From NCBI GenBank assembly GCA_951799405.1, contig OX637359.1, forward strand, positions 8,614,201 to 8,678,200: a stretch of 64,000 nucleotides of DNA, in the 5' to 3' direction. The translations under genes and the position numbers were made by a program. Positions 10,471 to 63,610 of this stretch are shown piece after piece (position 1 is the first letter of the stretch; each line of letters begins with the position of its first letter). The stretch is from Agapetus fuscipes. Lineage: Eukaryota; Arthropoda; Insecta; Trichoptera; Glossosomatidae. The notes beneath the pieces are model-generated. The model was not told where the DNA came from. It saw nothing but the letters and a program-made list of their open reading frames with translations, and searched no databases.

Positions 10471-10627
10471 ATAATAAAAATTAAAGCAAAATATCACAAC
10501 GTAAAAAACCGCAAAAGGATAAAAAATCGTTACACAAAATTAAAAACAAATCGAAACATTAAATTTAAGGGTTTCTGTATTGATATTGTGAATCTTTTTG
10601 TTAAATTAATGCCTTGTTAAACTAATG

Positions 10628-10904
10628 TTCCTTGACTTATAGGTTGGTATGCGGCTGACCACCCATACTGTAAAAAAAAAAATAATAAAAAATGGTTCAC
10701 TTTGCCAATGTCACCCCTGTTTCAGGAAAGGACGGCAAGAGTTGCAGAGCTTATGTTCATTTGAGATTGGATTTTTATATTGTAGGTCCACATGCGGTAT
10801 GTGTTAGCGCGAAATTATACATGTCTGCTTGTGGGAATGCATTTAATATAAATCTTAAATGATATATATCTTTGCAGCTTAGATTAAATTAGATTAGATT
10901 AGAT
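10628..10904 (+). mobile_element. Family A element, full length, near HHR-type palindrome
   Basis: TTCCTTGACTTATAGG to (TTAGA)n, with an extra A-rich run at 10672-10692. It lies just before the palindrome at 10920 and may split that element. Confidence 0.88.
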
Positions 10905-10919
10905 GGCGTAAAAATTAAA

Positions 10920-11062
10920 CACTGTTTTTCTTCACGAGTTAATACAAATCCTCGAGCGCTTTCGATCTTACATATTCCATTATTATATAGAGAATCTGTT
11001 GTTATCTTGATACCATCCAAAACGCTCGAGGAAATTAATCAACTCGTTAAGAAAAACTTTCT
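10920..11062. repeat. Inverted-repeat element with hammerhead-like 3' halves
   Basis: ACGAGTTAATACAAATCCTC at the left pairs with sequence ending TTAATCAACTCGT at the right. Both arms carry CGCTCGAGG-type ends, with GAAAGCGCTCGAGG (minus) and TTGATACCATCC-AAAACGCTCGAGG (plus). The left flank of the same element may resume upstream of the family A copy at 10628-10904, where TGTATTGATATTGTGAATC lies at about 10577. Confidence 0.55.
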
Positions 11063-11109
11063 GTTCTTACTTTTTACATAATTCATTTAATTTTTAACTA
11101 AAAGGAGTG

Positions 11110-11205
11110 TTTGTATGAAAAAAGGCTATGACTGGATGAAATGAAAGAAGTATGTAAGGACCGAAAAAAATGGCGGCTGATCTGTAATGTGCCAAGAATA
11201 ATTTT
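11110..11205 (+). pseudogene. RTE-like LINE 3' end fragment
   Basis: Encodes MKEVCKDRKKWRLICNV, the C-terminal end of an RTE-like ORF. Similar tails occur at 23365-23440, 30060-30115 and 18600-18720. Confidence 0.55.
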
Positions 11206-11364
11206 TCATTTAGATGTTTTGTAGATTTTTACTTTCTTGCTATAGCTGAAGGCTATAAAGAAAGTATTGATTTGGTGTGAAAATTTGTTTTCGAGTTTTT
11301 CACGGAAATGAGCTGTCCTGGTGCAGGACATGCCAAAAAACACTATCTTTCAAAAACGTCCGTC

Positions 11365-11367
<3 letters not shown>

Positions 11368-11402
<35 letters not shown>
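11368..11402 (+). repeat. (TG)n microsatellite
   Basis: About 15 uninterrupted TG repeats, then TATGTATG. Confidence 0.95.
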
Positions 11403-11405
<3 letters not shown>

Positions 11406-12470
11406 GTGTCACTTTCCAAAGTATAAGACCTAGAAATACCAAATTTTGGTTACATCAATTTTTTTGGACATGTATTAAGTATGAATAACATGGCATTACA
11501 CCAACGTGAAAATTCAAGATGGCTGCCATACAAAAAAAACATAAAATTGCACTTTTCTCAAAAACGGCTCGAAGAATTTTTCTTAAATTTTCAGAGTTGC
11601 CACTAATTAATTTTTAACTTAATAAATTATGTATGGCAACACTCTTGCTAATCTGTGTATATGGGCTGCGATATGAAAAAAACAAACAATCGTGATTTTC
11701 TCGAAAGTTAAGGGGTTAACAAAAATATAATGTTCTACAATATTATAAAAAACATAAATTTCTACAAAATTAAAAAATAAATATTTTGAAAAAAATATTA
11801 TAAAGCACAGTTTACACGACCTCAAATTTTAAATCGAAAATATAACAAAAACCCATTAAAATTCAAGATATTTAAATTTGTATTAGATTTAAAAGAAAGA
11901 ACAAGTTTGTCACTACAATTCATAACGAAAGATTTTTTTCTTTTTTGAAAATTCAAGGTGGCTTCCGAAGAGCTGAAAATTTTAAATGTGATTTTCTCAA
12001 AAATGGCTTCAACGATTTTTCTCAAATTTTCTGTGAATTCGTAAATTTAATAGTGCTATCTACTGATAATAATCATTACTTCATCATGATCTCGATTTAG
12101 GGAGTTGCCATACAAAAGAAAAAAAAATGAAAAATCCTCGGCAGTTAGAGGGTTAATAAAAAAATGATGTTCTACAAATGTAAAACAATAATAATAACGT
12201 ATATATTGCCATCATTATTTTTTCCAAAAAGTGAATAAAGAGTATAGCCGCCATACAAAGTGAAAATTTTCCATACAAAATGACGTATTGGCAATTTTCT
12301 TGGTAGTCAAAGGATTAAAATAAGATAAAAGGCTGCGATTCTTAAAATTTTATAAATACCAATAATAATCAGTTGTTACGTTTTTAAAATATAACTAAAA
12401 AGTTTACCCACCATACAAAGTCCTAGTTTGCATACAAAAGGGTTCAATGACCATCTATATATCTATATAT

Positions 12471-12729
12471 CTAGATTCTAGATTCTAAAATCTAAGTTGC
12501 AAAGATATATTTAAATTAAAAACTCATATCAAATGCATGCCCAGAAACAGACACGTGTAAATTCGCGCTTAAAACGCTGAATGTGTACTTACAAATTAAA
12601 ACCAAATCTCAAATGAACATAAAACCTGCAACTCTTGCCGACTCTCCTTGAAACAGGGGTGACATTGACAAAGCAAATTATTTTTTTCACTATGGGTGGT
12701 CAGCTTTATACCAACCTATAAGTCAAGGA
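12471..12729 (-). mobile_element. Family A element
   Basis: Full length with a degenerate TCTAGATTCTAAAATCTAAG tail. Confidence 0.85.
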
Positions 12730-13090
12730 TCTTTCTTGTGTAATTGGCGCTTTTTCCAGAGAAGACCAACCTCGCAGAGGGCTCTTGAGGTGTGATTCAC
12801 ACAAAACGGCGCTCAACAAATAAATCAACCAAATATGTCTATTCATTTAAGTATTTATATGGCTATATCCATATTGTACAAGTATGCAGGTACACACCGC
12901 GGTGGAATAAAATTGATTTATAATTGATATATTATATTTTTTAATGAAACGGCATAAGCCGGTAGATGATTCTAGCTTTACATACGTCATACAGTGGGTT
13001 AATTTTTGCAAGAAAGTCGAGTACAGATTCTGTGCAATTTATTTAGTGTTAGTTTGTTTGTATAACTGGATGTAATTAATTGCTTGTATT

Positions 13091-13359
13091 CTATGACTAT
13101 AAGGTTGGGATGAGGCTGACCACCCATACTGTAAAAAATGGTTCACTTTGCCAATGTCACCGTACTGTACTGTTTCAGGGAAGGTCGGCAAGAGTTGCAG
13201 GGCTCATGTTCATTTGAGATTGGGTTTTATATTGTACATAGGTCCACATGCGGCATGTGTGAGCGCGAAATTATGCGTGTCTGCTTGTGGGAATGCATTT
13301 AATATGAATCCTAAATGATACATATTATCTTTTCAACTTAGATTTAGATTTAGATTTTT
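13091..13359 (+). mobile_element. Family A element
   Basis: Full length; tail is (TTTAGA)n, and the CACC box is followed by a small GTACTGTACT duplication. Confidence 0.88.
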
Positions 13360-13977
13360 AAACATATCTCAAAGACCGTAAAAAAAACGCGTGAATGTGT
13401 CTCCAAAACTCCAAAAGAAGCACAAACGCCTACATAAGCATAGAAAATCGAAAAAATGTATGAAATCTAAAGAAGAAAATTAGGGTTAATCTTTAATAAA
13501 TGTTCTTCATTAGTTCGCAAGGCCATCAGATGTTAGGTCCTGATAGTTACGCAAGTGAAGTCTCAGCAATTACTAATTCAACAGTTTTGCTCAGCAGAAA
13601 CTCTGCCTGCGCAAGGCCGCTAACTTTTTGGTCCTCGCAACGCAAAGTTTGCGTCTCTGAATAACTGATTTCTACAATGTACTTCCTTATACTACAAACG
13701 TGTGTGAACAGAGTTGCTAGCTACACTAGAAAATTTAACACTTATTTTTTTTGTTACGGAAATTTGAAGAAAAAAAACTCTAGCAGTCGGTGTAGATTTT
13801 TAGCCAACAGACTGTTTTTTGTGCGACAATGGTCTTGTTAATTTCGTTATTAAAACAAGAGTTAAACAAAACAAAAAGCTAAAAAAAAAATCATGTTTCT
13901 TACTTAATTGTATAGAAGAAAAAACAAGATGAATATTTCTTTTATTAAAACACTTTTTACTTTCAGTTAATTTATTG

Positions 13978-14021
13978 ATATAGTAACGCTTTCGATCACT
14001 CACGATCATCATCAGGTACAA
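13978..14021 (-). ncRNA. Hammerhead-like motif, left arm of split palindrome
   Basis: Minus strand: core CTGATGA (plus 14009-14015), stem II GATC/GATC intact, GAAA, GCGT, TA. The stem I closing pair is C-C, with the next two pairs retained. It is the inverted partner of 14352-14395, and a family A copy (14056-14300) separates the arms. Confidence 0.6.
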
Positions 14022-14055
14022 CAAAAATCTATCATAAATGAAATCTGATTTGAAG

Positions 14056-14300
14056 TTCCTTGACTTGTAGGTTGGTATGCGGCTGACCACCCATGCTGTA
14101 AAAATGGTTCACTTTGCCAATGTCCCCCCTGTTTTAGGGAAGAAGAGTTGCAGGGTGTATGTCCATTTGAGATTTGGGTTTTTATGTTGTAGGCTCACAT
14201 GCGGCATGTGCAAGCGCGAACTTGTACGTGTCTGCTTGTGAGAATGCATATAATGTGAATCCCCAATGTAACATATCTTTGCAACTTAGATTAGATTAGA
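14056..14300 (+). mobile_element. Family A element between palindrome arms
   Basis: Full length from TTCCTTGACTTGTAGG to (TTAGA)n, inserted into the spacer of the HHR palindrome. Confidence 0.9.
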
Positions 14301-14351
14301 TGAAATCTATTTTAGATGCAATTTATCTGATATGATGATGATGGATTTTTG

Positions 14352-14395
14352 TTGTACCTGATGATGAATGTGAGTGATGGAAAACGTTTGTATAT
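14352..14395 (+). ncRNA. Hammerhead-like motif, right arm of split palindrome
   Basis: Core CTGATGA (14358-14364), GAAA (14380-14383), ACGT, TT as cleavage dinucleotide, stem I TTGTAC with GTATAT (five pairs including one G-T). Stem II has two mismatches compared with its partner arm, so activity is doubtful. Confidence 0.6.
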
Positions 14396-14789
14396 GTTTT
14401 AATAAATTAAGTGAAAGTAAACAATTTTTAAAAGAATAAAGTTTTTTTTTTCTATACAATTTTACTAAAGATCAATTATGAATTTTCACATCGTACATAA
14501 ACCATACAAAAATAAAATACATTGTGTTACAAGGAGTAAGGCAGTGTTCGACGATCCCATAAAGGCAAATCAGTATCAATTGCTTTCCTTTTGTTTGAAG
14601 CCGTCAGACTTCAGTAGGGAACATTCCCTTTTGTTCCAGTCGTCCATCATATGTCACTTTGCATAACAAATTTAATCTACCATACGAGAAATAAGTCCAT
14701 GAGAAATGCGTGTGATTGAAAAGTGGAAGATTTATAGACATTTTTGTAGAAGTGTCACTTATTTGTGAATTTCCATTACTGCTATATAC

Positions 14790-15647: not shown

Positions 15648-15800
15648 ATACATAAGAAGATAGTTCAGTAGGTAGAATGCTTGCGTTCCATTCTAGAGAG
15701 ATAGTGTTTGATTCCGCAAAGGAGGGCTCTTCAGGTGTGATACACACAAAAACAGCGCTCACCAAACAAATCATCCTAATATTAATATTATTATACGAGA

Positions 15801-17160: not shown

Positions 17161-17164
17161 ACAA

Positions 17165-17575: not shown

Positions 17576-17826
17576 ATCTATAAATGTTATCTAAGTTACG
17601 AAGATATGTTTACCTTTAAGATTCATATTATATGCGTGCGCACAAACAGATACGTGTAAGTTTGCGCTCACAAATTCTGCATGTGTACCTACTTACAAAA
17701 TAATATTCAAGCCTCGAATGAACATAAACCCTGCAAATTTTGCCGACCTTCCCTGAAACAGGGTTGTCATCGGCAAAGTGAACCATTTTATGCATATTTA
17801 TGTCATGCCAACCTTTAAGTCAAGGA
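17575..17826 (-). mobile_element. Family A element
   Basis: Runs TATCTAAGTTACGAAGATAT to CCAACCTTTAAGTCAAGG. Confidence 0.82.
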
Positions 17827-18164: not shown

Positions 18165-18210
18165 ATAAATTGATACCACTTTCGGCGCTCATGCCATCAT
18201 CAGGTACTAT
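18165..18210 (-). ncRNA. Hammerhead-like motif, core intact, stem I lost
   Basis: Minus strand: CTGATGA (plus 18197-18203), one unpaired T, stem II GGC/GCC around ATGAGC, GAAA, GTGG, TA. Flanking GTAC no longer pairs with the sequence after the cleavage dinucleotide. Confidence 0.5.
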
Positions 18211-26927: not shown

Positions 26928-28138
26928 GGATGCGTGTTCCCATTCCACCACTCAACTCGAATGTTCACTCACACATGCACACGGAAGTATTGCCATATTA
27001 TGTTAAATACGTACAGCAATGGTAGGTAATAATTATGTGGATAATATAACGCATTGCGTTATTTTTTGCATTCTGGTAATACGCGAAAAAGTGCTTTTGC
27101 TTCAAGAAGAAAAAGAAGTAATGTGCCGCGCATTTTAAAAACCGTTGATTGTATTATTATTTCATTTCGATGTGATTGAACTGGATTGAACGTGATCCAG
27201 ACCAATCCAGACGTGATTTCGATTTTCGGCAGATCGTTGAAGTTTATTTATTTATTTATTTATTTATTTACGGCATAAGCCTTTTACAAAAAAGTACATG
27301 TTAAGTGAGTTTGTACAAAACTGCGAAACAAAAAACAATAAAATACAAGAAAAAAAATATGAAAAACAATAAAAAACAATAAAATACAAAAAAATATATA
27401 AATATGAAACATTGCAGTAAAAAATAAAAGAATAACCAAGAAAAGAAAAGAAAAAATAAACCTATATGTATATAACCAGAAGGTTAGTACGAGTACTCCT
27501 TTTTGAGGTGTCATTAACATATTTCCTCAATGAACTGTATGTTTTACCATATTATTATCTTTTAACTTACGAGTTTCACTCAGTTACTAGGAAATATATA
27601 TTTGCTTTTCGAGAACATTTTCGTGCTGTTTTTGGTGAACTTTCGATTTTTTCAAATTGCTGATCCAATTTTATAAAGTTTTTAATACAATCTGCAGCGA
27701 ATTCATTACATTGGGCTATAATTCAATTCTACCTCGATATCGAAACGAAATACCTTTAACTTATAAAGGTTTGTGCATTTACTTAGTGAAAATTCATCTT
27801 AATCTATTGAATTTCTTATAAAACGTAAGTATTTTTCTTTTTTTAATATTTGTTATTTTATCCTCGAGTATGTACTTTCGACTGTCGTCATTTTCAAGAG
27901 TCATTTATATAGAAATTAAATAAAAAAAACTTCAACTTTTCATTAAATGTAATCCAGCTGTCTTATTTATCAATTTTCAACACTCATAACTGTGTATGTG
28001 CATTAAATTGCTTGTGTGCCAGTATATAGCTATTTGATAACAGTTGGTTTTCAGCTAGGTTCACTCATCTGCAATACTTCCGTGTGCATGTGTGAGTGAA
28101 CATTCGAGTTGAGTGGTGAAATGGGAACACGCGCCCAG
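26928..28138. mobile_element. 1.2-kb TIR element, non-autonomous
   Basis: GCGTGTTCCCATTCCACCAC and TCACTCACACATGCACACGG at the left recur inverted at 28072-28135. TIR about 65 bp with few mismatches. Interior is AT-rich with a (TTTA)n run at 27245-27272 and no transposase signature. Exact ends and target duplication unresolved. Confidence 0.82.
27245..27272 (+). repeat. (TTTA)n microsatellite
   Basis: Seven TTTA units inside the 1.2-kb TIR element. Confidence 0.9.
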
Positions 28139-29035: not shown

Positions 29036-29265
29036 GCCAGTAAGCACGCAGATATACATTCCGCTCCCCCAGTTCTTGTTTACCGTATACGCCAATCTTG
29101 TCAAATATGACTTTTTCATGCAGTTGTCTTATGAATCAAATTCTACACAATCTGAGCTAAGAAAAACCGTTAAACTCGATAATGTGAGAGTTCTTTTAAA
29201 TATTTTTAAAATAAATTTATTGTAGTAGATCACAGTTCTCATCAAGATCTTCATCATCATCATAC

Positions 29266-29312
29266 TTCACGCTGAAGAAGCCCATCGTAGAAATGGGCGA
29301 AACGTCCGGAAG
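29266..29312 (+). ncRNA. Hammerhead ribozyme, type I-like, core intact
   Basis: Core CTGAAGA (29272-29278), one unpaired A, stem II GCCCAT (29280-29285) with ATGGGC (29293-29298), GAAA (29299-29302), CG, then TC with predicted cleavage after C29306. Stem I TTCACG versus CGGAAG pairs at two inner and two outer positions around a two-position internal loop. Flanks recur near 42600-42750 in inverse orientation, showing it belongs to a dispersed element. Confidence 0.7.
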
Positions 29313-29809
29313 CTCCAGCTCCCACAGACCACGGCAACAGATCCCGGAAAACTTCACTCCAGCATAAATTTATTGTTTTCATAAGACACATTGGTCCAGT
29401 ACACATGCAAACATTGCTCGTGTAAAATTTTCTCAATGGCGTATACGGTAAGCAATAACTAAGGCAGCGATTCGTAACAATATTCGTAAACAATAAAGAC
29501 TTTGGGAATCACTGGCAATATTAAAGCGCCATCTGTCGGCGACTAAAACAAACAAAACTTTTAAATGAGGGTCGACCGGGAAGCTCGCAGATCATATTTG
29601 ATGATAATTAATAACAAATTTCGCAAAGTTTTGTATGAAAACAAATAAAACACTCGCAGTTCATAGTCGGCGAGCCAATAGAATTTATTTACTCGACAAT
29701 AATTGCTATTTATTTTAAGGGAAAATTTCTAGATGCTGATTTTTTTTATGGCATTTCAAAAGATTATATTTTCGTCGTCATTCCTTAATCTTTATAATTT
29801 TTAATAATA

Positions 29810-31410: not shown

Positions 31411-31648
31411 AGACCGGATATGAATTTATTTTCAAGGAGCTGACCTCTAGCTAATCACTTCATTTCGGTTGATGATTCAATTGATGATGTATGTACATAT
31501 CTGTTTCTGGCCAGGCAAAAATAAATTGGTGAATAGCTGTACTTCCAATTTTGTAGATTATAAGAAGCATTCACTTTGTTATCATTCATCTCAAAAGATA
31601 AAAATAAAAACGACTTAGTTTTAGATTACGGCGAGTATATTTAAAATT

Positions 31649-31691
31649 CCGCGACCGGTTTCGCAAACAATCCATTTGCATCTTCAGGTGG
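31649..31691 (-). ncRNA. Hammerhead ribozyme, type I-like, core intact
   Basis: On the minus strand: stem I CCAC with GCGG (3 of 4 pairs, one A-C mismatch), core CTGAAGA (plus-strand 31681-31687), one unpaired T, stem II GCAAA with TTTGC (5 of 5) around TGGATTG, GAAA, stem III CCGG, then TC as cleavage dinucleotide. Confidence 0.72.
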
Positions 31692-32041
31692 CTCATAATT
31701 ACAGAATGTAGTCCCACTCGAAAACTAATCAAAAATAACCTCAGTAATAGTATGCTCAGACGGTGTGAGTCGAGCATTTCAATAATAAATGAAAGTAATA
31801 CTAAGTGTTTTTTGGCTCTCACGTACGGTAGTGAACATCTGTGAGCGTATTTACATACTTGCCGCCATGTATTTTAGTTAAGTAGACATGTAAGCGGCTT
31901 AGCGTCTACGGCGCACTTCCTCTACAAAACGAACGGAAAGACGTTCACACGGGGACAGTGAATTAAAGTCAGAAATTGAAATTGACTACGAGAAAAATCT
32001 CTTACTGTCCTAAAAACACCCTATTTTGTATTTTAAGGAAT

Positions 32042-32569
32042 CTCTCTCAAGAAGTCAGAAGCAGACTAGAGCAAGCCCGAAATGTCTTCGCTAAAATGAG
32101 CAAATTACTGTTGTGCCGAAATTTAAGCCTTGAACTCCGGAAGCGCATAGTGAGGTGCTACGTTTTCCCAATCGCTCTGTATGGTATGGAGGGATGGACT
32201 CTCACGCAGGCACTGGAGAGACGTATTGAAGCATTCGAGATGTGTCTATACCGAAAAATGCTTCGGATCTCTTGGCGTGATCGAGTCACCAATGAAGAAG
32301 TCCTTCAACGAATGCGCACTACAAAGGAGCTCCTGCCTACCATTAAGCAGAGAAAGCTAATGTACTTCGGTCACATTATGAGAAATGAGAAGTACCGTCT
32401 CCTTCATATTATCATTAAGGGTAAGATTGAGGGGAGAAGATCTCAGGGACGCCGAAGGACATCATGGCTGAAGAACCTGCGACAGTGGTTCGGCAGAAGC
32501 ACCAAGTCCCTGTTTCGAGCCGCAGCATCAAAAATCAAAATAGCTATGATGATCGCCGATCTTCGTTAG
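32042..32569 (+). CDS. RTE-like non-LTR retrotransposon, C-terminal reverse transcriptase region
   Basis: An uninterrupted frame (from an ATG at 31976) carries LSQEVRSRLEQARNVFAKMS, then a thumb-like region with RIVRCYVFPIALYGMEGWTL, FEMCLYRKMLRISWRDRVTN, YFGHIMRNEKYRLL and GRRRTSWL. These are typical of the C-terminal end of endonuclease-reverse transcriptase polyproteins abundant in insect genomes. The catalytic YxDD region and endonuclease are absent, so the copy is 5'-truncated. It ends at TAG, followed within 10 bases by a GAAGAA repeat (32580-32600), the simple-repeat tail expected for RTE elements. The open frame suggests a fairly young insertion. It belongs to a mobile element, not to the host. 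Confidence 0.85.
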   Translation, partial: LSQEVRSRLEQARNVFAKMSKLLLCRNLSLELRKRIVRCYVFPIALYGMEGWTLTQALERRIEAFEMCLYRKMLRISWRDRVTNEEVLQRMRTTKELLPTIKQRKLMYFGHIMRNEKYRLLHIIIKGKIEGRRSQGRRRTSWLKNLRQWFGRSTKSLFRAAASKIKIAMMIADLR

Positions 32570-36382: not shown

Positions 36383-36429
36383 CTTCTGGACGTTTTGCCC
36401 ATGTCTTCGATGAGTTTCTTCAGCGTGAA
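36383..36429 (-). ncRNA. Decayed hammerhead-like motif, same family as 29266
   Basis: Minus strand reads TTCACG, CTGAAGA, a stem II pair (ACTCAT/ATGGGC, partly mispaired), then AAAA in place of GAAA, CG and TC. Loss of the invariant G before AAA should inactivate it. Family membership is clear from the surrounding match to 29266-29312. Confidence 0.6.
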
Positions 36430-36539
36430 TATAATGCAATGTTGATTTTCACGAAACTGTTAACTCTCTTAACGTATTGTTACTGAGTTGAAAAACAGTG
36501 GCATGAAAAGGAGACAAAAAAATCTGTAAGCTGTAACTG

Positions 36540-36870: not shown

Positions 36871-37088
36871 TAGAAGTTTTAGTATAAGTTCAACCAAAGA
36901 TGGTAGAGATACTGAAACCGTTCTTCAAATAAATGTGCTCAAGTGGTAAAAAACAAAGTTGTATTTTTTTTTTTTTAAATATGTTTTTTTTATATTATCT
37001 AGATTTTCAGCAGTTACTTCGTGAAAGTTCATTTTAATACAATAAAATAAAAATTGCTTTGTTTTAATTCACATGAGTTTATTTTTGG

Positions 37089-37133
37089 ACACGACCAGTT
37101 TCGGGAGAAGCAGTACCTCCCATCTTCAGGTGT
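37089..37133 (-). ncRNA. Hammerhead ribozyme, type I-like, left arm of palindrome
   Basis: Exact reverse complement of the motif at 37160-37204, with the same stems and core. The two copies are separated by about 26 nt. On one transcript only one of them can be in ribozyme sense, and the full palindrome would compete with ribozyme folding. Confidence 0.8.
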
Positions 37134-37159
37134 AAATAAAAAGAAAATAGTTTCTACTT

Positions 37160-37204
37160 ACACCTGAAGATGGGAGGTACTGCTTCTCCCGAAACTGGTC
37201 GTGT
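37160..37204 (+). ncRNA. Hammerhead ribozyme, type I-like, right arm of palindrome
   Basis: Stem I ACAC (37160-37163) pairs with GTGT (37201-37204). The core is CTGAAGA (37164-37170), then one unpaired T. Stem II is GGGAG (37172-37176) with CTCCC (37186-37190) around a 9-nt loop. Then come GAAA (37191-37194), a tiny stem III CTGG, and TC with predicted cleavage after C37200. All invariant core positions are present. An identical motif lies on the other strand in the left arm. Confidence 0.85.
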
Positions 37205-37740
37205 CCAAAAATATACTCATGTGAATTAAAACAAAGCAATTTTTATTTTATTGTATGTTTTTTTATTATTTTACAATAAACCTTTATTTCTTAGAGTTTT
37301 TCCTGTCTTACTCATATACTCAAAATAATATATTTTTTCAATAATAATCAAAGTAGGGATGCTTCTTTTTTACCCTATTTTTTTATAAAGTAATCAATCA
37401 ATCAAAGTAATTAAAAAATCATCAACCCGACTATCGTTCCAAGTCAGCTAATTGCCTTTCCGTTTACCTTTTGCAAAAGTCAAACCACATCAGCGGCGAG
37501 AAACTTTGTGAAAGCTGAAACAACACACTACAAGCTTTTTCTGTGTAGAAACAAAAGCGTAGAACAAACATGCCTAGCGAAACAACGGCCTTTGTCGTAG
37601 AACAAACCGTAGAGCAGTGATTACCAAACTTGTATGTTTTATAACCATTGAATTTTTGTTTTATTGCGACTCTCAAAAAATGATACATAAAACTATCATT
37701 TACTCCATATAATTCCATCTTCTAAAAATCCTTTACTGTT

Positions 37741-39630: not shown

Positions 39631-40854
39631 CTTGTATAAAGCTGACTAATTATTTAGTATGAGGCTGACTATTTTAGGGAAAAGTGGCTACACTTACAGA
39701 TTTTTTCTTGATAAGAAGTTTGGTTTTTCTCCTCTATGTACACATGCATTGTGTGTAAGCATGAACTCACATATTTTTGCTTGAAGCCATGCAATATGTG
39801 TGAATCTTAAATTTAGACAAAATCATTTAACCAGTATGGTTTGTGTATTAACACTGAAAATTCATATTTGATTTCTACTAAATTTTATAAAACCAAAATA
39901 ATTCTAATTAAACTCGAATAATGATTATTATTTAAATATAGTTCAATTAAAAAAAAAAACAAAATTAAATTAATAAATTTATTCAACTAACATGATCTGT
40001 AAATACGAGTATATGAATCAAATACCGCATTAAATTGGTAAATTTGTGTACATTTTTGAAATTGAGATGAGAGTAAATTTAAAAAAAAGCTCTAGTTGAA
40101 AGCTCAATCCTTTAAGTTCTTAATTGCAAAGCGGGAGGCTAAGGTTTGAATCCAACCTATGTCAAAAAATGTAACCCTGTGTCAAAACATATTAACCTGT
40201 GTCAAAAATATTCTATGAAAAAACTTACACCTCAAAAATTAAATTAAAAATCAAGCACGCACGAGTTCACAAATTTTCCAAACGTGTATTCGTTTTCCTT
40301 TATACTAAAGATTCTGAAATCTTGAAGCCCTCAAAATAAAAAAAATACATGAAATCTACATCAAAGTAAAAATAATATTCAAACGTTTTTCTTTTTATTT
40401 CAAACATATCACAGGGCCTGAGATTTTTTTTCGTTTTTTTTTCATGTTATAATATTCTTTTCAAATATATTACGGGCATTATTCATTGTATCAAAACATG
40501 AGGATATATTTCCAAATGTATTTTTTCCAACGAGAAGGCGAGCGTTTCATGTTTTCATGTAAAAAGAAGCCATTCTGGAAATGACTTACATTGTTTTTTT
40601 TCCGCATTTCCTACCCACTGAATGTTTTTAATTTCACATAATTCGAAGAATTTTTTTAAGGATTTGTGTATTAAAACTTCATAATTGTTCAAAATGGATT
40701 TCCACAAAAAAACAATATTTGTTATTGTAAAAGTTGTAGGATTTGTGTATTGACATTGTGTAGATTCGTTTTAAATTAATAATGTAAAAATAAAAGACAA
40801 AGTTTTTCCACGAGTTGATTTATTTCCTCGAACGCTTTCGATGTGATCACACCA

Positions 40855-40905
40855 TTATCCACTTGATAATGGTGCGATAACATTGAAAGCGCTCAAGAAA
40901 ATTAA
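40855..40905 (+). ncRNA. Decayed hammerhead-like motif (TTGATAATGG class)
   Basis: Contains TTGATAATGGTG followed by a hairpin, GAAAGCGCTC and AAGAA. Same class as 54821, 63560 and the palindrome at 10925-11060. Stem I does not pair well. Confidence 0.4.
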
Positions 40906-46526: not shown

Positions 46527-46530
46527 CATT

Positions 46531-46803
46531 CTAGTACATCTTTAGTATAGAAGTATATACTCTAGTACATCCTTTGTATAGAAGTACATACTCTAGTACA
46601 TCCTTAGTATAGCAGTACATACTCTAGTACATCCCGAGTATAGAAATACATACTCTAGTACATCCCGAGTATAGAAGTACACACTCTAGTAAATCCTTAG
46701 TATAGAAATATATACTCTAGTACATCCTTAGTATAGAAGTACATACTCTAGTACATCCTTAGTATAGAAGTACATACTCGTACATCCCGAGTATAGAAGT
46801 AGG
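46531..46803. repeat. Tandem repeat, 31-bp unit, ~8.7 copies
   Basis: CTAGTACATCCTTAGTATAG then AAGTACATACT. Two alternating variants (CCTTAGT and CCCGAGT). Starts immediately after the MITE at 46289-46526. Confidence 0.93.
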
Positions 46804-53894: not shown

Positions 53895-53965
53895 TAGCAA
53901 AGCACGTCTAGTATGAAATATCTGTAATAATATGTGTTTAATGTATTCTTCTTTTTCTTCGGCAG

Positions 53966-54124
53966 GTCTCTGTGGTGGTGGACGACGTGTACGGCGAGCA
54001 CTCGCACGTGGCGGGGCAGTTCAGCATGCTGGCCTCCAGCCGCGCCCACGTGGCGGGCTCCATCAACCCCAGGGCGCTGCTGGGCTCCAGGGTGCACAGC
54101 AACTTCGTGGGCTGCCTCAAGAAG
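53966..54124 (+). CDS. Nrx-1: Neurexin-1 exon: C-terminal part of LNS2 domain
   Basis: The 159-bp exon (53 codons, phase 0 at both ends) encodes VSVVVDDVYGEHSHVAGQFS and continues through NPRALLGSRVHSNFVGCLKK. The NFVGCLKK ending is the conserved close of a neurexin LNS domain, with the Cys that normally pairs with a Cys encoded further downstream. The acceptor is GGCAG and the donor GTGAGG. The next exon lies beyond the window. Codon third positions are strongly G/C (for example GTGGTGGTGGACGACGTG), in contrast to the AT-rich introns. A 21-bp-arm hairpin lies 71 bp upstream of the acceptor. Confidence 0.93.
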
Positions 54125-54820
54125 GTGAGGAGCAACACTTCTATCATTCAAAAATAATCAAATCAAAGCTCAGCAAATCTGGGGTGGAAGTCTTGACGAT
54201 AGATCTTACCGTAGGTATATATTTGAAGATAGGACCAAATAAGACATGGCCATCATTAACTTTTTGTGGAATTTGGTCCATCAATACATTTTTAGGTGTT
54301 TTTTATCTGAAAAAATATTATAAATTCTAAATATTCTATTCTAAATTTGTTTTGCTGAGGAAAGTATAGGTATTTTATTTGACTGTGCTATTATGTTTTA
54401 TTTTTTATTTATTTTTATTTTAATAGGACAACAAACAGCGTTACATAAGAAATATAATAATAACAATTACAAAAAATATGGCCAATTATATGTTGCCACG
54501 GATATCAAGTTTAGAAAGTTGGAAAGAATTTCAAGTTGTTAATTACAAGTGCCTAATTACAAGAAAAAAAATACTGCTCTCAAAACAGAACAGTAAATGT
54601 AATCCTAATCCTTGATTTTTTTCTTTCTTTGTTATTCATTGTAAATTACCTTGTCATAAAATTATGTAAATGGACTATCATGTCCGTTAATAAAATAAAA
54701 TAAAAAATTGTAATTATATTATGTGTCATTTCCTTATTGTACCTATTTGTCATACCTAAATCATTATTTTTATTTTATTTCTCTATGGTGTTTGTCTTGT
54801 CAATTTTTGTAATTTAGTAT

Positions 54821-54860
54821 CCTCTTGATAATGACGTGAATAAGTCGAAAGTACTTGAGG
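54821..54860 (+). ncRNA. Hammerhead-like motif with catalytic G8 replaced
   Basis: Stem I CCTC with GAGG (4 of 4), core TTGATAA instead of CTGANGA, stem II GAC/GTC, GAAA, GTAC, TT. The paired stems survive but two invariant core bases, including the catalytic G8, are changed. Confidence 0.5.
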
Positions 54861-55367
54861 TTGAAATAAATACTCAATTTGTGAAAATAAAACTCTGTGT
54901 TTTTTATAATTTTTTATAATTATTTATAAAAATGAATTTTCACTGTGTGAATACACAAACTTTAAAAAGTCTAAAATAAAAAAAAGATAAAATATCACTA
55001 AATCGCTTAATGAATTTCACTTTGAGGACGATTGGGATTTTTTTCCTTTCATAAAATTGTAGATTCAAAATTTCAAAATGCAACTGCGTTTTTTTTTAAA
55101 TTAAATATACAGGGCAGTTTTCTATTCTAGCTGTTTAAAACTAGCACATCTTCGATTGTCGGTGAAAAAATGTATGTTTCATGTGAACCCAGAATATGTT
55201 TTAAGTCAATTTTCTAATGTTAATCACTTTTTGCTCAATTTAATGAATGTCACCAAAATACGATGTAATTTCACACATGTATTATTATGGTAATACCAAC
55301 AAATTCAGCGGGTTATGCGTAAGCCACGGTGCGGTAGGAAACCGCAGATTTAATAACCAGTCTCAGT

Positions 55368-58061: not shown

Positions 58062-58292
58062 TATGCTTGATTTTCTGGTACCGGGGTTTGACCGTGGTCC
58101 ATGTTTTTGCTTGTCTTCTTCTTTTTTTCTTTTATCAGTAGCGAGCAGAACTCCGAAGAAGTCACCCACAGAGGAGACGAAACGTAGGCTGAAAGTCTTC
58201 AAGAAAGAATAAAAAGAAAAAAAAAAAAAAAAGAAGACAAGCAAAAACATGGATCACGGTCAAAACCCGGTACCAGAAATTCAAGCATCTAG
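58062..58292. repeat. Inverted repeat, ~70-bp arms, enclosing HHR-like centre
   Basis: Left arm from ATGCTTGATTTTCTGGTACC through TTTTGCTTGTCTTCTTC, right arm its complement ending AAATTCAAGCAT. The purine tract at 58208-58234 pairs with the pyrimidine tract at 58110-58134. Confidence 0.8.
58149..58190 (+). ncRNA. Hammerhead-like motif in the loop of an inverted repeat
   Basis: Core CCGAAGA (58153-58159; U4 changed to C), one unpaired A, stem II GTCACC/GGAGAC (5 of 6), GAAA (58179-58182), CG, TA, then GGCT. Probably inactive because of the core change. Confidence 0.5.
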
Positions 58293-58329
58293 ATCCGGCC
58301 GTGAAAGCCTAAAAATATTTACTATATAA

Positions 58330-58665: not shown

Positions 58666-59159
58666 CAACCAATAAGTCAAGGAATACGACTATAAGAAAT
58701 AGATGGAGCATCAGAAGCATTTGGCGTGCTGAATTTTTGACATTTTATGGCGTCAAAGAGGTCTTCTTATAAGCAAATTCCAGGCAACCTTTCAATGAGT
58801 ACTGTCTAACACAAATCGTTGTCATCTTAAAGCGTCCCCTGATCAAGCTAAAAAAACGATCTAGAAATTACCTGTTACCTCAATTATATAATCTACATAA
58901 AACAGATATATATTTACGCTCACTAGAGGCGCTTTTTGGATTTCAATGCAGTTTTTTGTGAAACACTACGTTAGAGTTACAACGTAAAGTTTTATACTCT
59001 TGGTACTGATCCGCTCGTGTTGAAAAAATGTGGAATAATCTAACTTTGAAATGAACCTTGAGAGTTAAGTGTGCATAAACGCAAACATTTGAATGCTGCG
59101 TGTCAATTTTGAATGTGAAAAATTAAAAATTGTAAAAGTAGATAATTTTTTATGTATAA

Positions 59160-59240
59160 TTTGTTGTGCTCTGCCTGGAATTGAACTCACTACCTTTTGT
59201 TTACGAGTCCGTAGCGTTAATAACTAAACTGCCGCGGACT
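59160..59240 (-). mobile_element. SINE D head fragment
   Basis: GTGCTCTGCCTGGAATTGAA and TTACGAGTCCGTAGCGTTAA. Confidence 0.65.
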
Positions 59241-59315
59241 TGTCCGCAATTGGCAAGCCCTACAGTTACTCAATATTGTTTGTTCAATCCGTCTGTGACG
59301 GCTTTTTTTTGTAAA

Positions 59316-59650
59316 GGCAGTGCCTTGTTCTGCTAGCCATTAATTGTCTCTGCTGCTCGCCATCCTCTTTTTAAGGCAGTGCCTTGTTGTGCCAGCCATC
59401 TGTCTGTTGGTTGCCATCCTCTTGTAAAGGCAGAGCCTTGTTGTGCCAGCCATCTGTCTGTTGGTTGCCATCCTCTCGTAAAGGCAGTGCCTTGTTGTGC
59501 TACCCATTTGCCTCTGCTGGTCGCCATCCTCTTGTAAAGGCAATGCCTTGTTGTGCCAGCCATCTGTCTCTGTTGGTTGCCATCCTCTTGTAAAGGAAGT
59601 GCTTTGTTGTGCCAGCCATCTGTCTCTGTTGACTGCCATCTTCTCGAGCT
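59316..59650. repeat. Minisatellite, six units of 54-59 bp
   Basis: Units starting GGCAGTGCCTTGTTGTGCCA begin at 59316, 59375, 59429, 59483, 59539 and 59595. Each carries GCCATCTGTCT and GCCATCCTCTTGTAAA. Open frames on both strands result from periodicity, not from a gene. Confidence 0.92.
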
Positions 59651-60005
59651 GCGAATATGAGGAGGCATCCGTGAGACGCTTCAAATTCTGAAAGCATGTT
59701 GATTTTAGTGAGTATGAATTCCTTTCGTGTACGTTCGCCTAATATCGGCTCCGATCGACTTTTCTTCGAAAGATATTTTATAAGGAGATTATGCAGAGAG
59801 TTTTAAATAGTTTAAACGTACATTAAAATACATGACACGGAAAGTTCGCCAAAGAACCAGAGCTAAAGTTAGTCATTTTAAATAGAATCCGGTCAATATA
59901 CAATTTATTGTAAACGGTTTCCAAACTCGAAGCATTCTTAAAAGTTTCAAAATTTTTAATCATTTTTTTAAAAGCATAAAGCTTTTTCGTTGGAGGATTT
60001 ATTGT

Positions 60006-60050
60006 AATATCGTAGTTTCGTTTACGTCGTAGTCAACGTCTTCAAGAGAT
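60006..60050 (-). ncRNA. Decayed hammerhead-like motif, left member of inverted pair
   Basis: Minus strand: ATCTC, TTGAAGA (C3 changed to T), stem II GTTGAC/GTAAAC, GAAA, CTAC, GATAT. Stem I keeps four of five pairs. The U before the cleavage site is replaced, so it is probably inactive. Confidence 0.5.
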
Positions 60051-60090
60051 GTTAGCTGAACTCATCTTTAATCGTCACAATACAAGGGAG

Positions 60091-60132
60091 TCTCCTGAAG
60101 ACGTTGTCTGTGAAGCAAACACAACGTCGAAA
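60091..60132 (+). ncRNA. Decayed hammerhead-like motif, right member of inverted pair
   Basis: Reads TCTC, CTGAAGA (60095-60101), a degraded stem II, ACAA in place of GAAA, CG, TC, then GAAA in place of GAGA. Clearly the same family as 62411-62452, including the following ATAATGTAA. Confidence 0.55.
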
Positions 60133-60762
60133 ATAATGTAATAAAACAATGGTTCGTGAAATATTGTACAAATTCATAAGTAATGAGATGCCAATTAGGT
60201 TAAGACCCAGCTGCAAGACCTACTAAAAGTGGAAAGATAGCTGGAAGTCTTCATCTCAGGATCCATGAGCCGATATGAAGTCCATTACTTGAACATTATC
60301 TTTTATTGATATTCCCGGAAAAATTATTACGAGTGTCCTTTTAGGGATTAAAAAATCACAAAATAGATTATACGAAAGCAATCATTATTTGTAAAATTTT
60401 TGACAGATTATTTTTTTGAAAAAGTTAAATTAAAAAATCTGACAAGTCCGCGATATCATCAGGAAAATCAAAAACTAATTACTTCAGATTTGAAATCAAT
60501 TAAAAAAAACACGATTTCACCGTTAATGCGAAAAACGTGTAACTTCGAACAAAAAAAAACGAACATTGAAGGACAATTAAGGTCGGGAGTTTTTTGTACT
60601 TTTTTAGTAGGTTGTTTGTAAGGTTTTTTTTTAATTTTGAGACCTTTAATAATACAAAAAAAATACCCGGTTTTCATCATCATCATCATTAATGGCAAAA
60701 AAAACAGGGGTGTATAGTCTCGTTGATAAACCTCAGCCACCGCTGCCTGTGCATCGCCTTTC

Positions 60763-61024
60763 TAATCTAATCTAATCTAAGCTGCAAAGATACATATATA
60801 TTTAACATTTAAGATTTATATTAAATGCATTCCCACAAGCAGATATGTATAATTTCGCGCTAACACATGCCGCATGTGGACCTACAATATAAAAATCCAA
60901 TCTCAAATGAACATAAGCTCTGCAACTCTTGCCGTCCTTCCCTGAAACAGGGGTGACATTGGCAAAGTGAACCATTTTTTACAGTATGGGTGGTCAGCCG
61001 CATACCAACCTATAAGTCAAGGAA
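60763..61024 (-). mobile_element. Family A element, full length
   Basis: Clean (TCTAA)n tail, all internal boxes intact. Confidence 0.9.
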
Positions 61025-61084
61025 CAGCCTTTGCCTTTGTCCTCCTAAATCTAGGTCTCCCATTGTACTGTAACCCTTTGGTCG

Positions 61085-61175
61085 GTGACCGGTGGCAGTC
61101 GAACGGTTAACGCTACTTTATCTTAATCAGGAAGTATTGAGTTCGATTCCCAGCAAAGCACAATAAAAATAACAT
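61085..61175 (+). mobile_element. tRNA-like SINE head, unassigned family
   Basis: CAGTCGAACGGTTAACGC and GAGTTCGATTCCCAGCAAAG resemble pol III boxes A and B; followed by AATAACATTTAATTTTC as in SINE D. Confidence 0.55.
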
Positions 61176-61429
61176 TTAATTTTCAAAAAATTACAAACGT
61201 GTATTATTTAGCCTTAGAGAAACTAGGGCTTGCTTTAGATGATCCATTATGATCTATTACACTTTTGATCTATAATTGACTAAGTTGTATTTTTATTATT
61301 ATTTGAAATTCATATTTAATGCACGCTCACAAGCATCACATGCAAGTTCGCGCTCACATATGCTTCATGAGAGCCGACAAAATAAAAACCAAATTTTAAA
61401 TAGACACCAATCCTGCAACTCTTGCTGAC

Positions 61430-61750
61430 CTTGCTGCACTGTAACTGTAACTGTTACTCTGTTGCCGTTCCGTTAGGGGTGGCCAGAGCTTTTTCAGAGC
61501 TGCCTCCATTTTTTCCTATCCTTACGTACCTCTTTCAGTTCATTCAAATCCATCACCTTTTTCATGCATTTTCTTTTTTTACGCTCTCTTTGTATAATGT
61601 ATATACCATTCCTTCACAATCTCCTCAATACTTTTCTCGATCGTCCCTTACCTCTTTTTACTTTCACACTTCCCCTGTATATAATATTTTGTCAGTCTAT
61701 CATTATTCATTATTTCCACATGCCCAAAACCATCTCATCAGATTCTGCCT
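61430..61750 (-). pseudogene. Decayed non-LTR retrotransposon fragment
   Basis: Related to 36540-36870. Contains ATGCCCAAAACCATCTCATC, the antisense of the RT tail, as in 56650-56670. Confidence 0.5.
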
Positions 61751-62104
61751 ACCCAACAATAGGGCATTGGCAAAGTGAACCAATTTTTACAGTATGGTAG
61801 TCTGCCTCATACCAAATTATAAGTCAAGGATGTTCTGATTGCAAATATAAGTATTCATCTAGAAAAAGTGAGTCTTTTGTGCTTCGTTTATGAAACAAAT
61901 TGAAACTTTTAAAAACCTCAAGGCGATCATTTACAAAGTTCACATGAGAGGGTTAATTTAATATTCCAAAAGTTTTTTTTTCACCGCTACCCTGTATTTT
62001 GGTACTGAGTAATATTATTTAAAATTTCCAAAGGTCTGGGGCGTCTAGGGACATTATATGTATTAAGGTCAACGATATTACAACACCAAGATAGCGTTTT
62101 CTGT

Positions 62105-62345
62105 CCATAATTTAAGCTGCAAACAAAAGCATTTAAGATACGTATTAAATGAATGCCCACAATCAGACACGTGCTTAACTGCTTATACATGCCGCATGTG
62201 AACTTATTATAACTAAAATTTCAAGTAAACATAAGCCCTGCAACTCTTGTCCACTTTCCTTGAAACAGGGGTGACATTGGCAAAGTGAAACTTTTTTTTA
62301 CAGTATGGGGGGTCAGCCTCATACCAACTTATTAGTCAAGGAATG
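62105..62345 (-). mobile_element. Family A element
   Basis: TAATTTAAGCTGCAAAC to ACTTATTAGTCAAGGAATG. Confidence 0.82.
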
Positions 62346-62410
62346 CAAACAATTAATTACAGTTAACTACGACGACTGAGGATGAACTATTTTTTCATGT
62401 AAAGAGGGTG

Positions 62411-62452
62411 TCTCCTGAAGACGTTAGCTACGTCGCTAACGAAACGTCGAGA
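62411..62452 (+). ncRNA. Hammerhead ribozyme, type I-like, core intact
   Basis: Order read directly: stem I 5' strand TCTC (62411-62414); core CTGAAGA (62415-62421); one unpaired C; stem II GTTAGC with GCTAAC (62423-62428 and 62435-62440) around loop TACGTC; GAAA (62441-62444); CG; then TC with predicted cleavage after C62448; stem I 3' strand GAGA (62449-62452). Stem I pairs 4 of 4 and stem II 6 of 6. Stem III is a single C-G beyond the A-T pair, as in the minimal hammerheads of Penelope-like elements and animal retrozymes. Cleavage activity is inferred from structure. Confidence 0.85.
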
Positions 62453-62564
62453 TTAATGTAAGTTCTCTTATAACGGTTCGTCCATTATCCGAGTACAATT
62501 TTTCACTGTGTGGTTATTATTATTGTAAAAACAGCGCTCATCTTATTATAAATGTTTTTTTTTC

Positions 62565-62735
62565 ATATTTTGTATGGTTTGTGTATTAACACTGTGAAAA
62601 TTCATATTCAATAATTTATTTAGATTAAGGATTTAAATCAAACACTGTTCTATATTTTCACTTTTATAATTTTACTTTTTAAATTTTACTAACGTTTTCG
62701 ATCTTAGATCATCTTCAGGTATACAAATTTTTTAA
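62565..62735 (-). mobile_element. HHR-bearing dispersed element (TTTGTGTATT flank)
   Basis: The far end TTTGTGTATTAACACTGTG with AAAATTCAT recurs near 39838 (+), 40740 (+, diverged), 54935-54960 (inverse) and 10577 (+, diverged). Several of those loci also carry a hammerhead-like motif 60-200 bp away, so flank and motif travel together. Confidence 0.55.
62687..62721 (-). ncRNA. Hammerhead ribozyme, type I-like, short stem I
   Basis: Minus strand: stem I TAC with GTA (3 pairs), core CTGAAGA (plus 62712-62718), one unpaired T, stem II GATC with GATC around TAA, GAAA, ACGT, then TA as cleavage dinucleotide. It lies in a block that begins near 62570 with TTTGTGTATTAACACTGTG, a flank shared with other hammerhead-like loci here. 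Confidence 0.65.
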
Positions 62736-62934
62736 AACAAAAGTCAATGGTACCAAAAAGTTTTTTTTTCATTTAGATGTAAAGGCATGTAAGGGCTATG
62801 TCATCTCATATTATTAATATCCAACCAGGATCAGGTGTGTGTGGGTTTTAAACGTGAAAATGTGGGAGGATCAGATAAACGTAGGTGTTAGAGAGGCACA
62901 GTATACCCTAAAAAGAATACTTTACTTCCCTCTC

Positions 62935-63310
62935 AGCCATAGCGTTTTACTATAAAAATTAACTGACACCAAAACGCTCAAAAGAGGCACTGTTTCAATT
63001 TCAAAACATTTTTTGGTATCTACATCTATCTGTGAGTTTAAACGTAGGGTTTTTAATTTATGATACTTATTTCATCTAAGGGGTGATAAACTATAGGATA
63101 GCGTATAACAAAAAATGTGCGAAAACCAAAACGCTAAATATAGAGGGTTATTTCAATTTCCGTGCGTTTTTTCGATAGTAAATTATCGAGTTTAAGCTTG
63201 TGTCTAAGCACTTGGTGCTTATTCCATAAATGTATATAAACTAAAACGCACACTAAAAGCGCTGCTTTCATTTACTTACATTTTTTGGTAAAACGCAATT
63301 GTTGAGTTTA
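62935..63310 (+). repeat. Three tandem, diverged family F-like units
   Basis: AAAACGCTCAAAAGAGGC, AAAACGCTAAATATAGAGG and AAAACGCACACTAAAAGCGC each precede a TTTCAATTT/TTTCATTT block with a T-rich GGTA/GATAGTA box, about 130-150 bp apart. Confidence 0.5.
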
Positions 63311-63549
63311 TGGGCAATGTTATTTAGTTAAGGTACAGGACGTGGGTGGTCAGCCCACGCAGAATTATGGCGGCAAAAGTTGCTGGAAAACGGAGGAAAT
63401 GGATTATCCTAGAGCCTAACTTTTAGACGTTTTAAGGCACATTTAAGCTGCGAGTGGACGGTCTTTTAATATTTCAATTAATTTACACGTAAAATTTTAG
63501 GTAGGTGTAATAAATAAAATTAACTATGAATGAGAGTTCATTACTAAAA

Positions 63550-63610
63550 CTGAAAATAACTTGAAAATGGTGCGGTAGCACTCCGAAAGCGCTCGAGATA
63601 TTATAATCAA
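63550..63610 (+). ncRNA. Decayed hammerhead-like motif (TTGAAAATGG class)
   Basis: TTGAAAATGG, then hairpin GTGC-GGTA-GCAC, then CCGAAAGCGCTCGAGA. Shape and 3' half match the class; the core heptamer is lost. Confidence 0.4.

What the first reader, a model, noticed from the sequence alone, without database searches (positions are those of the whole stretch)
10577..63610. About 16 hammerhead-like motifs in 64 kb, several in inverted pairs
Loci: 10920-11062, 13978(-), 14352(+), 18165(-), 29266(+), 31649(-), 36383(-), 37089(-), 37160(+), 40855(+), 54821(+), 58149(+), 60006(-), 60091(+), 62411(+), 62687(-), 63550(+). They fall into at least five sequence classes with different stem II sequences but the same architecture. 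Such density suggests ribozyme-bearing retroelements are a major component of this genome.
Basis: partly seen in the sequence, partly recalled or inferred. Interest (0 to 1): 0.85.

Follow-up and report, generated by a model that had tools for sequence, protein, structure and literature searches.

The report
Penelope retroelement ends carrying minimal hammerheads
The hammerhead-like motifs are real: they are decaying end-repeats of Penelope-like retrotransposons, a known kind of jumping gene that carries a stripped-down self-cleaving RNA motif, and the genome around them holds tens of thousands of copies.

Summary
The window, which carries laminin G exons and looks insect, holds about 20 copies of a hammerhead-like motif. 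Six pass a full descriptor against 0.023 per shuffle, nine match strict genome patterns, others are decayed. In the window's own 618-Mb genome four related patterns match 23,804 places against 169 for reversed controls. They are pseudo-LTRs of Penelope-like elements: reverse transcriptase and GIY-YIG frames lie between paired motifs, and in 20 selected head-to-head pairs a tail sits on exactly one arm in 19, with target-site repeats above control in most. The 'inverted pairs' are single insertions, as known for Penelope. Stem III is missing; in its place is a mostly self-complementary 2- or 4-mer, the design of dimer-cleaving hammerheads. Core pair 3-8 is C-G, U-A or U·G, rarely C×A. Each of these features (save U·G, which I did not look up) is in print; finding them in thousands of copies in one genome is the useful part. 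By my estimate they cover about 0.6% of it. Cleavage is untested.

The parts
37089..37133 (-). Hammerhead-like motif A1 (C3-G8; linker CUGG), left arm of a head-to-head pair
37160..37204 (+). Hammerhead-like motif A2 (C3-G8; linker CUGG), right arm of the same pair
37009..37033 (-). PLE 'tail' of pair A, on the left arm only (score 21; background 99% = 11; right arm 7)
36980..36990 (.). Left target-site duplication TATGTTTTTTT of pair A
   Evidence: control 95% = 8 bp, max 10
37254..37264 (.). Right target-site duplication of pair A
31645..31692 (-). Motif A3 (C3-G8; linker CCGG; stem I with a mismatch), tail near 31590(-), score 15; ends approximate
62410..62453 (+). Motif B1 (C3-G8; linker CG; stem I 5 bp)
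60005..60050 (-). Motif B3, decayed left arm of head-to-head pair B (U3, G8); ends approximate
60090..60136 (+). Motif B2, dead right arm of pair B (GAAAC block missing); ends approximate
62687..62721 (-). Motif C1 (C3-G8; linker ACGU; UUA cleavage triplet)
62576..62600 (-). PLE tail of C1 with AC-rich stem-loop GTGTTAATACAC (this copy served as the query)
13978..14019 (-). Motif C2, left arm of a head-to-head pair split by an inserted dispersed repeat
14354..14394 (+). Motif C3, right arm, stem II decayed; weak tail near 14481 (score 10, below the 99% background of 11)
18170..18207 (-). Motif C4, cleavage triplet lost; ends approximate
54821..54860 (+). Motif D1 (U3-A8; linker GUAC; stem I CCUC/GAGG)
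54935..54961 (+). PLE tail of D1
27863..27900 (-).
40825..40860 (-). Motif E2, 5'-truncated left arm of a head-to-head pair; tail near 40760(-), score 13
40860..40900 (+). Motif E1 (U3-A8), right arm, no tail; ends approximate
10950..10989 (-). Motif E5, decayed left arm; a tail at 10594(-) lies beyond an inserted dispersed repeat
11003..11037 (+). Motif E4, decayed right arm
63558..63600 (+). Motif E3 (U3-A8; linker GCGC)
29265..29310 (+). Motif F1 (C3-G8; linker CG); the class has 2,117 strict copies in the genome
29211..29376 (.). F1 element bounded by a 13-bp duplication ATAAATTTATTGT (29211-29223 and 29364-29376)
   Evidence: control 95% = 8 bp, max 10
36383..36430 (-). Motif F2, decayed (GAAA to AAAA)
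58149..58195 (+). Motif G1, hammerhead-like with a core change; no second copy looked for; weakest of the list

Best explanation
The motifs are minimal, dimer-type hammerhead sequences in the pseudo-LTRs (pLTRs) of several Penelope-like element (PLE) lineages. Shown here: the motif recurs with flanks, tails and target-site repeats, and PLE reverse transcriptase and GIY-YIG reading frames lie between motif pairs in the same genome. Shown here: stem III is missing and replaced by a short, mostly self-complementary linker. Inferred from published work: two RNA copies pair through that linker to build a full ribozyme that cuts after the UH triplet, perhaps only with the help of the PLE protein. 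The PLE protein starts reverse transcription at the tail about 100 nt downstream and inserts into AT-rich DNA with short duplications. Copying on both target strands, or self-priming, joins two 5'-truncated copies head-to-head; that gives the inverted pairs. Many copies in the window are dead remnants.
For: Motif density: 6 against 0.023 per shuffle. Genome: C3-G8 15,197 (control 29), U3-A8 5,893 (84), U3·G8 2,211 (31), C3xA8 503 (25), class F 2,117 (0). Of 98 distinct strict matches in fetched loci, 65 also have stem II, UH and stem I; with the downstream 25 nt shuffled, UH plus stem I turn up in 4.3%. Coding: RVT_1 E 4.8e-13 and GIY-YIG E 1.3e-5 in L077 between head-to-head C-G motifs; GIY-YIG E 2e-5 in L078 (U-A) and 3e-6 in L083 (U·G). 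Tails: exactly one arm in 19 of 20 selected pairs, none on both; flank repeats of 9-14 bp in 13 of 19 and 6-7 bp in 6 (mean 10.0) against 5.5 (sd 1.3, max 12) in swapped flanks. Linkers: of 70 four-nt linkers 50 are Watson-Crick palindromes and 67 count with wobble. Tail distance resembles PAc, whose RT starts in an AC-rich stem-loop 111-118 bp into the ORF (PMC11167929). Head-to-head pLTRs with a tail on one of them and TSDs are described for Penelope (PMC3846280 passages).
Against: No PLE reading frame was found in the window itself (150 of 160 ORFs of 66 aa or more left after a low-complexity filter). GIY-YIG in L079 is below Pfam's cut-off, and three of the eight frames scanned gave no match. 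In all six hits one extra base stands between A9 and stem II (my reading), unlike the textbook hammerhead, which could weaken cleavage; in fetched loci it is 60 of 67, but most of those were found with patterns that require that base. Rfam's hammerhead models do not match. 33 of 98 strict matches lack one of the further elements. Nine of eleven window elements show no target-site repeat above control. PLE assignment of classes B and G is by architecture only; for F a GIY-YIG-like frame between two F motifs was read by eye, not scored.
Confidence: 0.94

Rival explanations
1. Non-LTR retrozymes: small tandem repeats with a type I hammerhead that spread through circular RNAs.
For: Same ribozyme type; retrozyme-like repeats are said to occur in insects too (PMC7229834 passages).
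Against: Neighbours of one 3-8 class within 500 bp are head-to-head, not direct: 29 of 29 in three lists; 7 of 10 in a fourth. PLE coding frames, tails and target-site repeats are present. None of the 19 tandem-array rows of the window is an array of the motif.
Confidence: 0.03
2. The motif is kept for a structural reason (protein binding, reverse-transcription template structure, or self-priming of the cDNA 3' end), not for self-cleavage.
For: In vitro PAc inserts as well with a dead hammerhead, and its hammerhead cuts only when protein is present (PMC11167929). An extra base beside stem II (with the bias stated). In 12 of 20 selected pairs the two cores lie only 14-41 nt apart, so the 5' ends of these copies crowd at the motif.
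Against: UH, stem I, GAAA and the 3-8 pair are kept together with a mostly self-complementary linker in different families, which is what catalysis as a dimer needs. The pairs were selected by me for having both motifs close together.
Confidence: 0.2
3. Ordinary inverted-repeat (MITE-like) DNA transposons with chance hammerhead likeness.
For: Short palindromic units with duplicated target sites.
Against: One-sided tails and PLE reverse transcriptase/GIY-YIG frames between arms; thousands of motif copies against tens in reversed controls, with stem II sequences that differ yet self-pair (80 of 98 distinct strict matches have stem II of 3 bp or more).
Confidence: 0.02

Closest known systems
Minimal type I hammerheads of Penelope-like elements (Cervera and de la Pena 2014; Luense, Weinberg and Breaker 2017; neither text held; titles and reviews seen)
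   Same: Stem III lacking, dimer design, location in pLTRs of PLEs, thousands of dispersed copies in many metazoan genomes (PMC7761336 passages).
   Different: Here abundant families carry U3-A8 or U3·G8 at the core pair; I could not check whether the 2014 and 2017 papers list such families.
Penelope elements of Adineta vaga with inverted pLTRs (PMC3846280, passages)
   Same: Head-to-head inverted pLTRs, optional tail of 31 bp on one of them, TSDs of 8, 9 and 10 bp in the passages seen, some copies without TSD.
   Different: The 20 units sampled here are short (157-434 bp between outer arm ends), too short for an ORF; hammerhead is not mentioned in that paper (0 occurrences).
PAc (Poseidon of Anolis carolinensis) hammerhead and RT start site (PMC11167929, main text read)
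   Same: C3 and G8 before the start codon and ORF starting at stem II, as with the ATG after G8 in most classes here; AC-rich stem-loop about 110-120 nt downstream where copies end.
   Different: The PAc sequence was not compared directly; tails here vary by family; classes B1 and F lack the ATG.
Natural U3-A8 hammerheads (PMC3088659, passages and section 8)
   Same: The same compensatory change, reported in several natural examples and said to have been proven active in vitro; dimer-capable palindromic stem/loop III in Aedes aegypti and others.
   Different: Here thousands of copies in one genome, together with a U3·G8 class.
Metazoan retrozymes (PMC7229834, passages)
   Same: Type I hammerhead, non-coding repeats, weak stem III with a palindromic loop in axolotl.
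   Different: Direct tandem repeats and circles there; head-to-head pLTR units with PLE tails here.

Membership tests
Penelope-like elements | Single ORF with reverse transcriptase and GIY-YIG endonuclease | tested here: met
   Both domains met in one genome relative (L077, in two overlapping frames of a broken copy), GIY-YIG alone in L078 and L083; 4 of 8 frames scanned passed the cut-off of either domain; not found in the window itself.
Penelope-like elements | pLTRs, direct and/or inverted, head-to-head | tested here: met
   Arms of 109-168 nt, 88-100% alike in 20 selected pairs; 29 of 29 close neighbours head-to-head in three lists, 7 of 10 in a fourth.
Penelope-like elements | Optional tail on one pLTR, near an AC-rich stem-loop | tested here: met
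   19 of 20 pairs with one tail, 0 with two, 1 with none recognised (tail queries adapted from these families). In the window 5 of 20 copies score above the 99% background (one is the query itself), at 96-118 nt from the core.
Penelope-like elements | Short target-site duplications | tested here: met
   Mean shared stretch 10.0 bp against 5.5 in swapped flanks (19 pairs, 6 of them within the control range). Window: pair A 11 bp and F1 13 bp; the other 9 elements not above the 95% control.
Minimal dimeric type I hammerhead | Core, stem II, GAAA, UH and stem I together | tested here: met
   65 of 98 distinct strict matches in fetched loci have stem II, UH and stem I of 3 bp or more (C-G 29 of 43, U-A 30 of 44, U·G 5 of 7, CxA 1 of 4); shuffled control for UH plus stem I 4.3%.
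Minimal dimeric type I hammerhead | Stem III missing in the monomer but able to form between two copies by a self-complementary linker | tested here: met
   Of 79 distinct copies: 67 of 70 four-nt linkers self-complementary with wobble, 50 without; of 7 two-nt linkers 5 CG and 2 CA; 2 eight-nt linkers not, one of them a likely chance hit in the window.
Minimal dimeric type I hammerhead | Self-cleavage | not testable with these tools
   Needs a bench assay.
Canonical hammerhead (Rfam) | Match to Rfam hammerhead models; stem II directly after A9 | tested here: not met
   No Rfam match; one extra base after A9 in all six hits (read by me) and in 60 of 67 copies (a sample biased towards it by the search patterns).
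Retrozyme | Direct tandem repeats of 150-400 nt each with a hammerhead | tested here: not met
   No direct neighbours of one class within 500 bp in the lists; one direct pair, of different stem II, in the list. Lists cover the first places only.

The most novel reading that the evidence does not exclude
In this genome PLE hammerheads have evolved along the core pair 3-8 from C-G through U·G to U-A in several lineages, and lineages have also changed their dimer linker to different self-complementary words. These lineages would then be orthogonal ribozymes that pair only with their own kind (CCGG with CCGG, GUAC with GUAC, ACGU with ACGU), so that the linker acts as a recognition tag for like RNA in cleavage or packaging.
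Probability: 0.2. Interest if true: 0.65.

Novelty: new member of a known kind. Interest (0 to 1): 0.36.

Why it matters
It settles what the motifs are, and shows that Rfam's hammerhead models miss a very abundant form in this genome. The genome offers a natural experiment: thousands of copies each with C-G, U-A and U·G at the core pair that includes the catalytic G8, and several different self-complementary linkers. That makes the open question of whether PLE hammerheads are kept for cleavage testable by comparison and by simple cleavage assays.

Tried and rejected
Rfam at gathering score and at E up to 10, whole window and two 101-base stretches: no hammerhead. The loose hammerhead descriptor was rejected as evidence: 24 hits against 7.65, five of them copies of one unrelated repeat. 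Pfam on window ORFs found laminin G and weak matches that look like chance, no PLE domain. MAFFT alignment of ten motifs misaligned the stems, so no covariance model was built. IMG/VR pattern scans gave 0, 0 and 2 places and GTDB 11 places in prokaryote records; I did not look into them and suppose chance. Within one stem II family (first 100 of 1,316 places) my reading gives C-G 10, U·G 61, U-A 28, C×A 1; Fisher P 0.17, so covariation inside that single family is not significant; the genome-wide lack of C×A rests on families, which are not independent. One search used the narrower C-G count; one search repeats it. Literature: searches for Penelope-like + hammerhead + Lepidoptera, hammerhead ribozyme + Watson-Crick + C3-G8 and hammerhead ribozyme + G8A returned no paper; Cervera 2014, Luense 2017 and Craig 2021 are not held, so what they report on U-A cores is unknown to me. 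The U3-A8 variant that I first took for new is in print (PMC3088659).


Full report
What was checked. All 17 loci of the finding were printed and the copies anchored on core base 3. I count 20 copies in classes A-G. Six of them satisfy a complete dimer-type hammerhead descriptor, against a mean of 0.023 in 300 dinucleotide-preserving shuffles; five satisfy a stricter version against 0.003. With a classical descriptor there are five hits against 0.08, one of which (51212) I regard as chance. With the loosest scan there are 24 hits against 7.65, five of them copies of one unrelated repeat. Rfam 15 has no hammerhead match for them.

Surroundings. A 25-nt block, TTTTCACAGTGTTAATACACAAACC, taken from the copy at 62600, occurs 8 times in the window with up to 7 mismatches (the query included) against 0.5 in 40 shuffles. 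With five tail queries, five copies (A1, A3, C1, D1, E2) have a tail above the 99% background, 96-118 nt downstream of the core on the same strand; C1 is the query itself, D2 equals the background value, and C3 and B1 lie just below. Classes C, D and E share sequence downstream of the motif (its own 99% background from random window pairs was inflated by repeats, so I rely on the shuffle z-scores of 8-13). The block holds an AC-rich stem-loop (GTGT-TAAT-ACAC). In the anole PLE PAc, reverse transcription starts in an AC-rich stem-loop 111-118 bp into the ORF, the ORF starts at stem II, and genomic copies end there, the so-called tail (PMC11167929, main text read). The equation of the two is my inference from position and composition; the PAc sequence was not compared.

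The genome. The window is C27:8614201-8678200 of a 618-Mb assembly. Patterns of the form C-X3-TGAN-Y8-ATG-N8-30-CGAAA gave C-G 15,197 (reversed control 29), U-A 5,893 (84), U·G 2,211 (31) and C×A 503 (25). If positions 3 and 8 were independent, C×A would be about 4,160; copies of a family are not independent, so this is no test of significance. The C×A places listed are scattered over many stem II sequences, by my reading mostly single mutants of other classes (first 100 listed). Class F, with another base after the core, has 2,117 copies and no control match. The window holds 9 strict copies against 2.45 expected. Of 98 distinct strict matches in the fetched loci, 80 have stem II of 3 bp or more and 65 also UH and stem I of 3 bp or more; with the 25 nt after GAAA shuffled, UH plus stem I turn up in 4.3%.

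Pairs. In the position lists (100, 99 and 84 places used) all 29 neighbours within 500 bp are (-,+). In the broader list it is 7 of 10, the three others joining copies with different stem II. Twenty of the 22 close (-,+) pairs in the lists were taken; their arms are 109-168 nt long and 88-100% alike. Nineteen carry a tail on exactly one arm, none on both, one on neither (the tail queries were adapted from these families, so the one-sidedness is the result, not the presence). The flank outside the tail repeats the flank outside the other arm over 9-14 bp in 13 of these 19 and 6-7 bp in 6 (mean 10.0; swapped control 5.5, sd 1.3, max 12). In the window, pair A shows the tail on the left arm only and an 11-bp duplication, and F1 a 13-bp duplication; nine other window elements tested show none above the 95% control. 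Each pair is therefore best read as one insertion. This is the Penelope structure described in Adineta vaga: head-to-head inverted pLTRs, a tail on one of them, TSDs (PMC3846280, passages).

Coding proof. Eight wider regions were taken. Between the arms of a C-G pair (L077) lie frames matching RVT_1 (E 4.8e-13) and GIY-YIG (1.3e-5), both above Pfam's cut-offs; between arms of a U-A pair (L078) GIY-YIG at 2e-5; between arms of a U·G pair (L083) 3e-6; L079 is below the cut-off (6.5e-4) and three further frames (L076, L080, L081) had no match. For class F a GIY-YIG-like frame between two F motifs was read by eye only. So all three core types occur in Penelope-like elements.

How the ribozyme would be built. 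In 79 distinct copies with stems I and II and a UH triplet (window and fetched loci; the linker was chosen by stem length, not by self-pairing), 70 have a four-base linker between GAAA and UH; 50 of these are Watson-Crick palindromes and 67 count with wobble: CCGG 23, GUAC 16, GUGC 9, CUGG 8, AUAU 5, GCGC 4, ACGU 2. Of seven two-base linkers five are CG and two CA; three four-base and two eight-base linkers are not self-complementary. A random four-mer is a palindrome one time in 16; five different four-base palindromes and CG together have a chance near 2e-7 if families are independent, which is only approximate. A self-complementary linker can form stem III between two copies. This is the design of hammerheads that cut as dimers, known from newt and avocado sunblotch viroid (PMC6155905 passages), proposed for Aedes (PMC3088659) and reported for PLEs (title of Luense et al. 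2017; reviewed in PMC7761336). The C3-G8 to U3-A8 change has been reported in several natural hammerheads and said to be active in vitro (PMC3088659 section 8). One point against textbook activity: one extra base stands between A9 and stem II in all six hits (my reading) and in 60 of 67 copies, most of which were found with patterns that require it. In PAc the hammerhead cuts only with the PLE protein present and is not needed for insertion in vitro.

Verdict. Observation largely confirmed and extended; interpretation partly right. The elements are Penelope-like, not retrozymes; the inverted pairs are single insertions; the share of the genome is near 0.6% by strict count (estimate). The kind is known. 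What is worth keeping is the abundance, in one genome, of three core-pair classes and several self-complementary linkers, which makes the purpose of PLE hammerheads testable.

Noticed in passing
9977-10192 (+), 53942-54154 (+): ORFs matching laminin G (E 1.2e-9 and 1.3e-4; 8977-9234 only 0.037): probably exons of a neurexin-like gene (the name is recalled, not from a call).
   Followed up: partly
5716(+), 39862(-), 40685(-): PLE tail blocks (6, 4 and 7 mismatches) in which I saw no motif upstream: probably further remnants.
   Followed up: no
31967-32566 (+): Protein fragment with 49 relatives, some with a reverse-transcriptase domain; named ones in butterflies, moths, a beetle and a psyllid.
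   Followed up: partly
2708-62301, e.g. 17691-17794: A dispersed repeat with 15 copies of a 104-nt stretch in the window at 60% identity or more, some inserted inside PLE remnants.
   Followed up: no
46530-46801 and 59309-59644: Tandem arrays of a 31-bp and a 56-bp unit.
   Followed up: no
37084-37209, 6078-6227, 58102-58249: Hairpins that score as miRNA precursors below Rfam's cut-offs; the first is the head-to-head PLE pair A, so such pairs could be mistaken for miRNA genes or give double-stranded RNA.
   Followed up: partly
L053, L056, L067, L068 and other sampled pairs: The inner ends of many head-to-head arms crowd at the motif: cores 14-41 nt apart in 12 of 20 selected pairs; why copies end just upstream of the hammerhead is unexplained.
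   Followed up: partly
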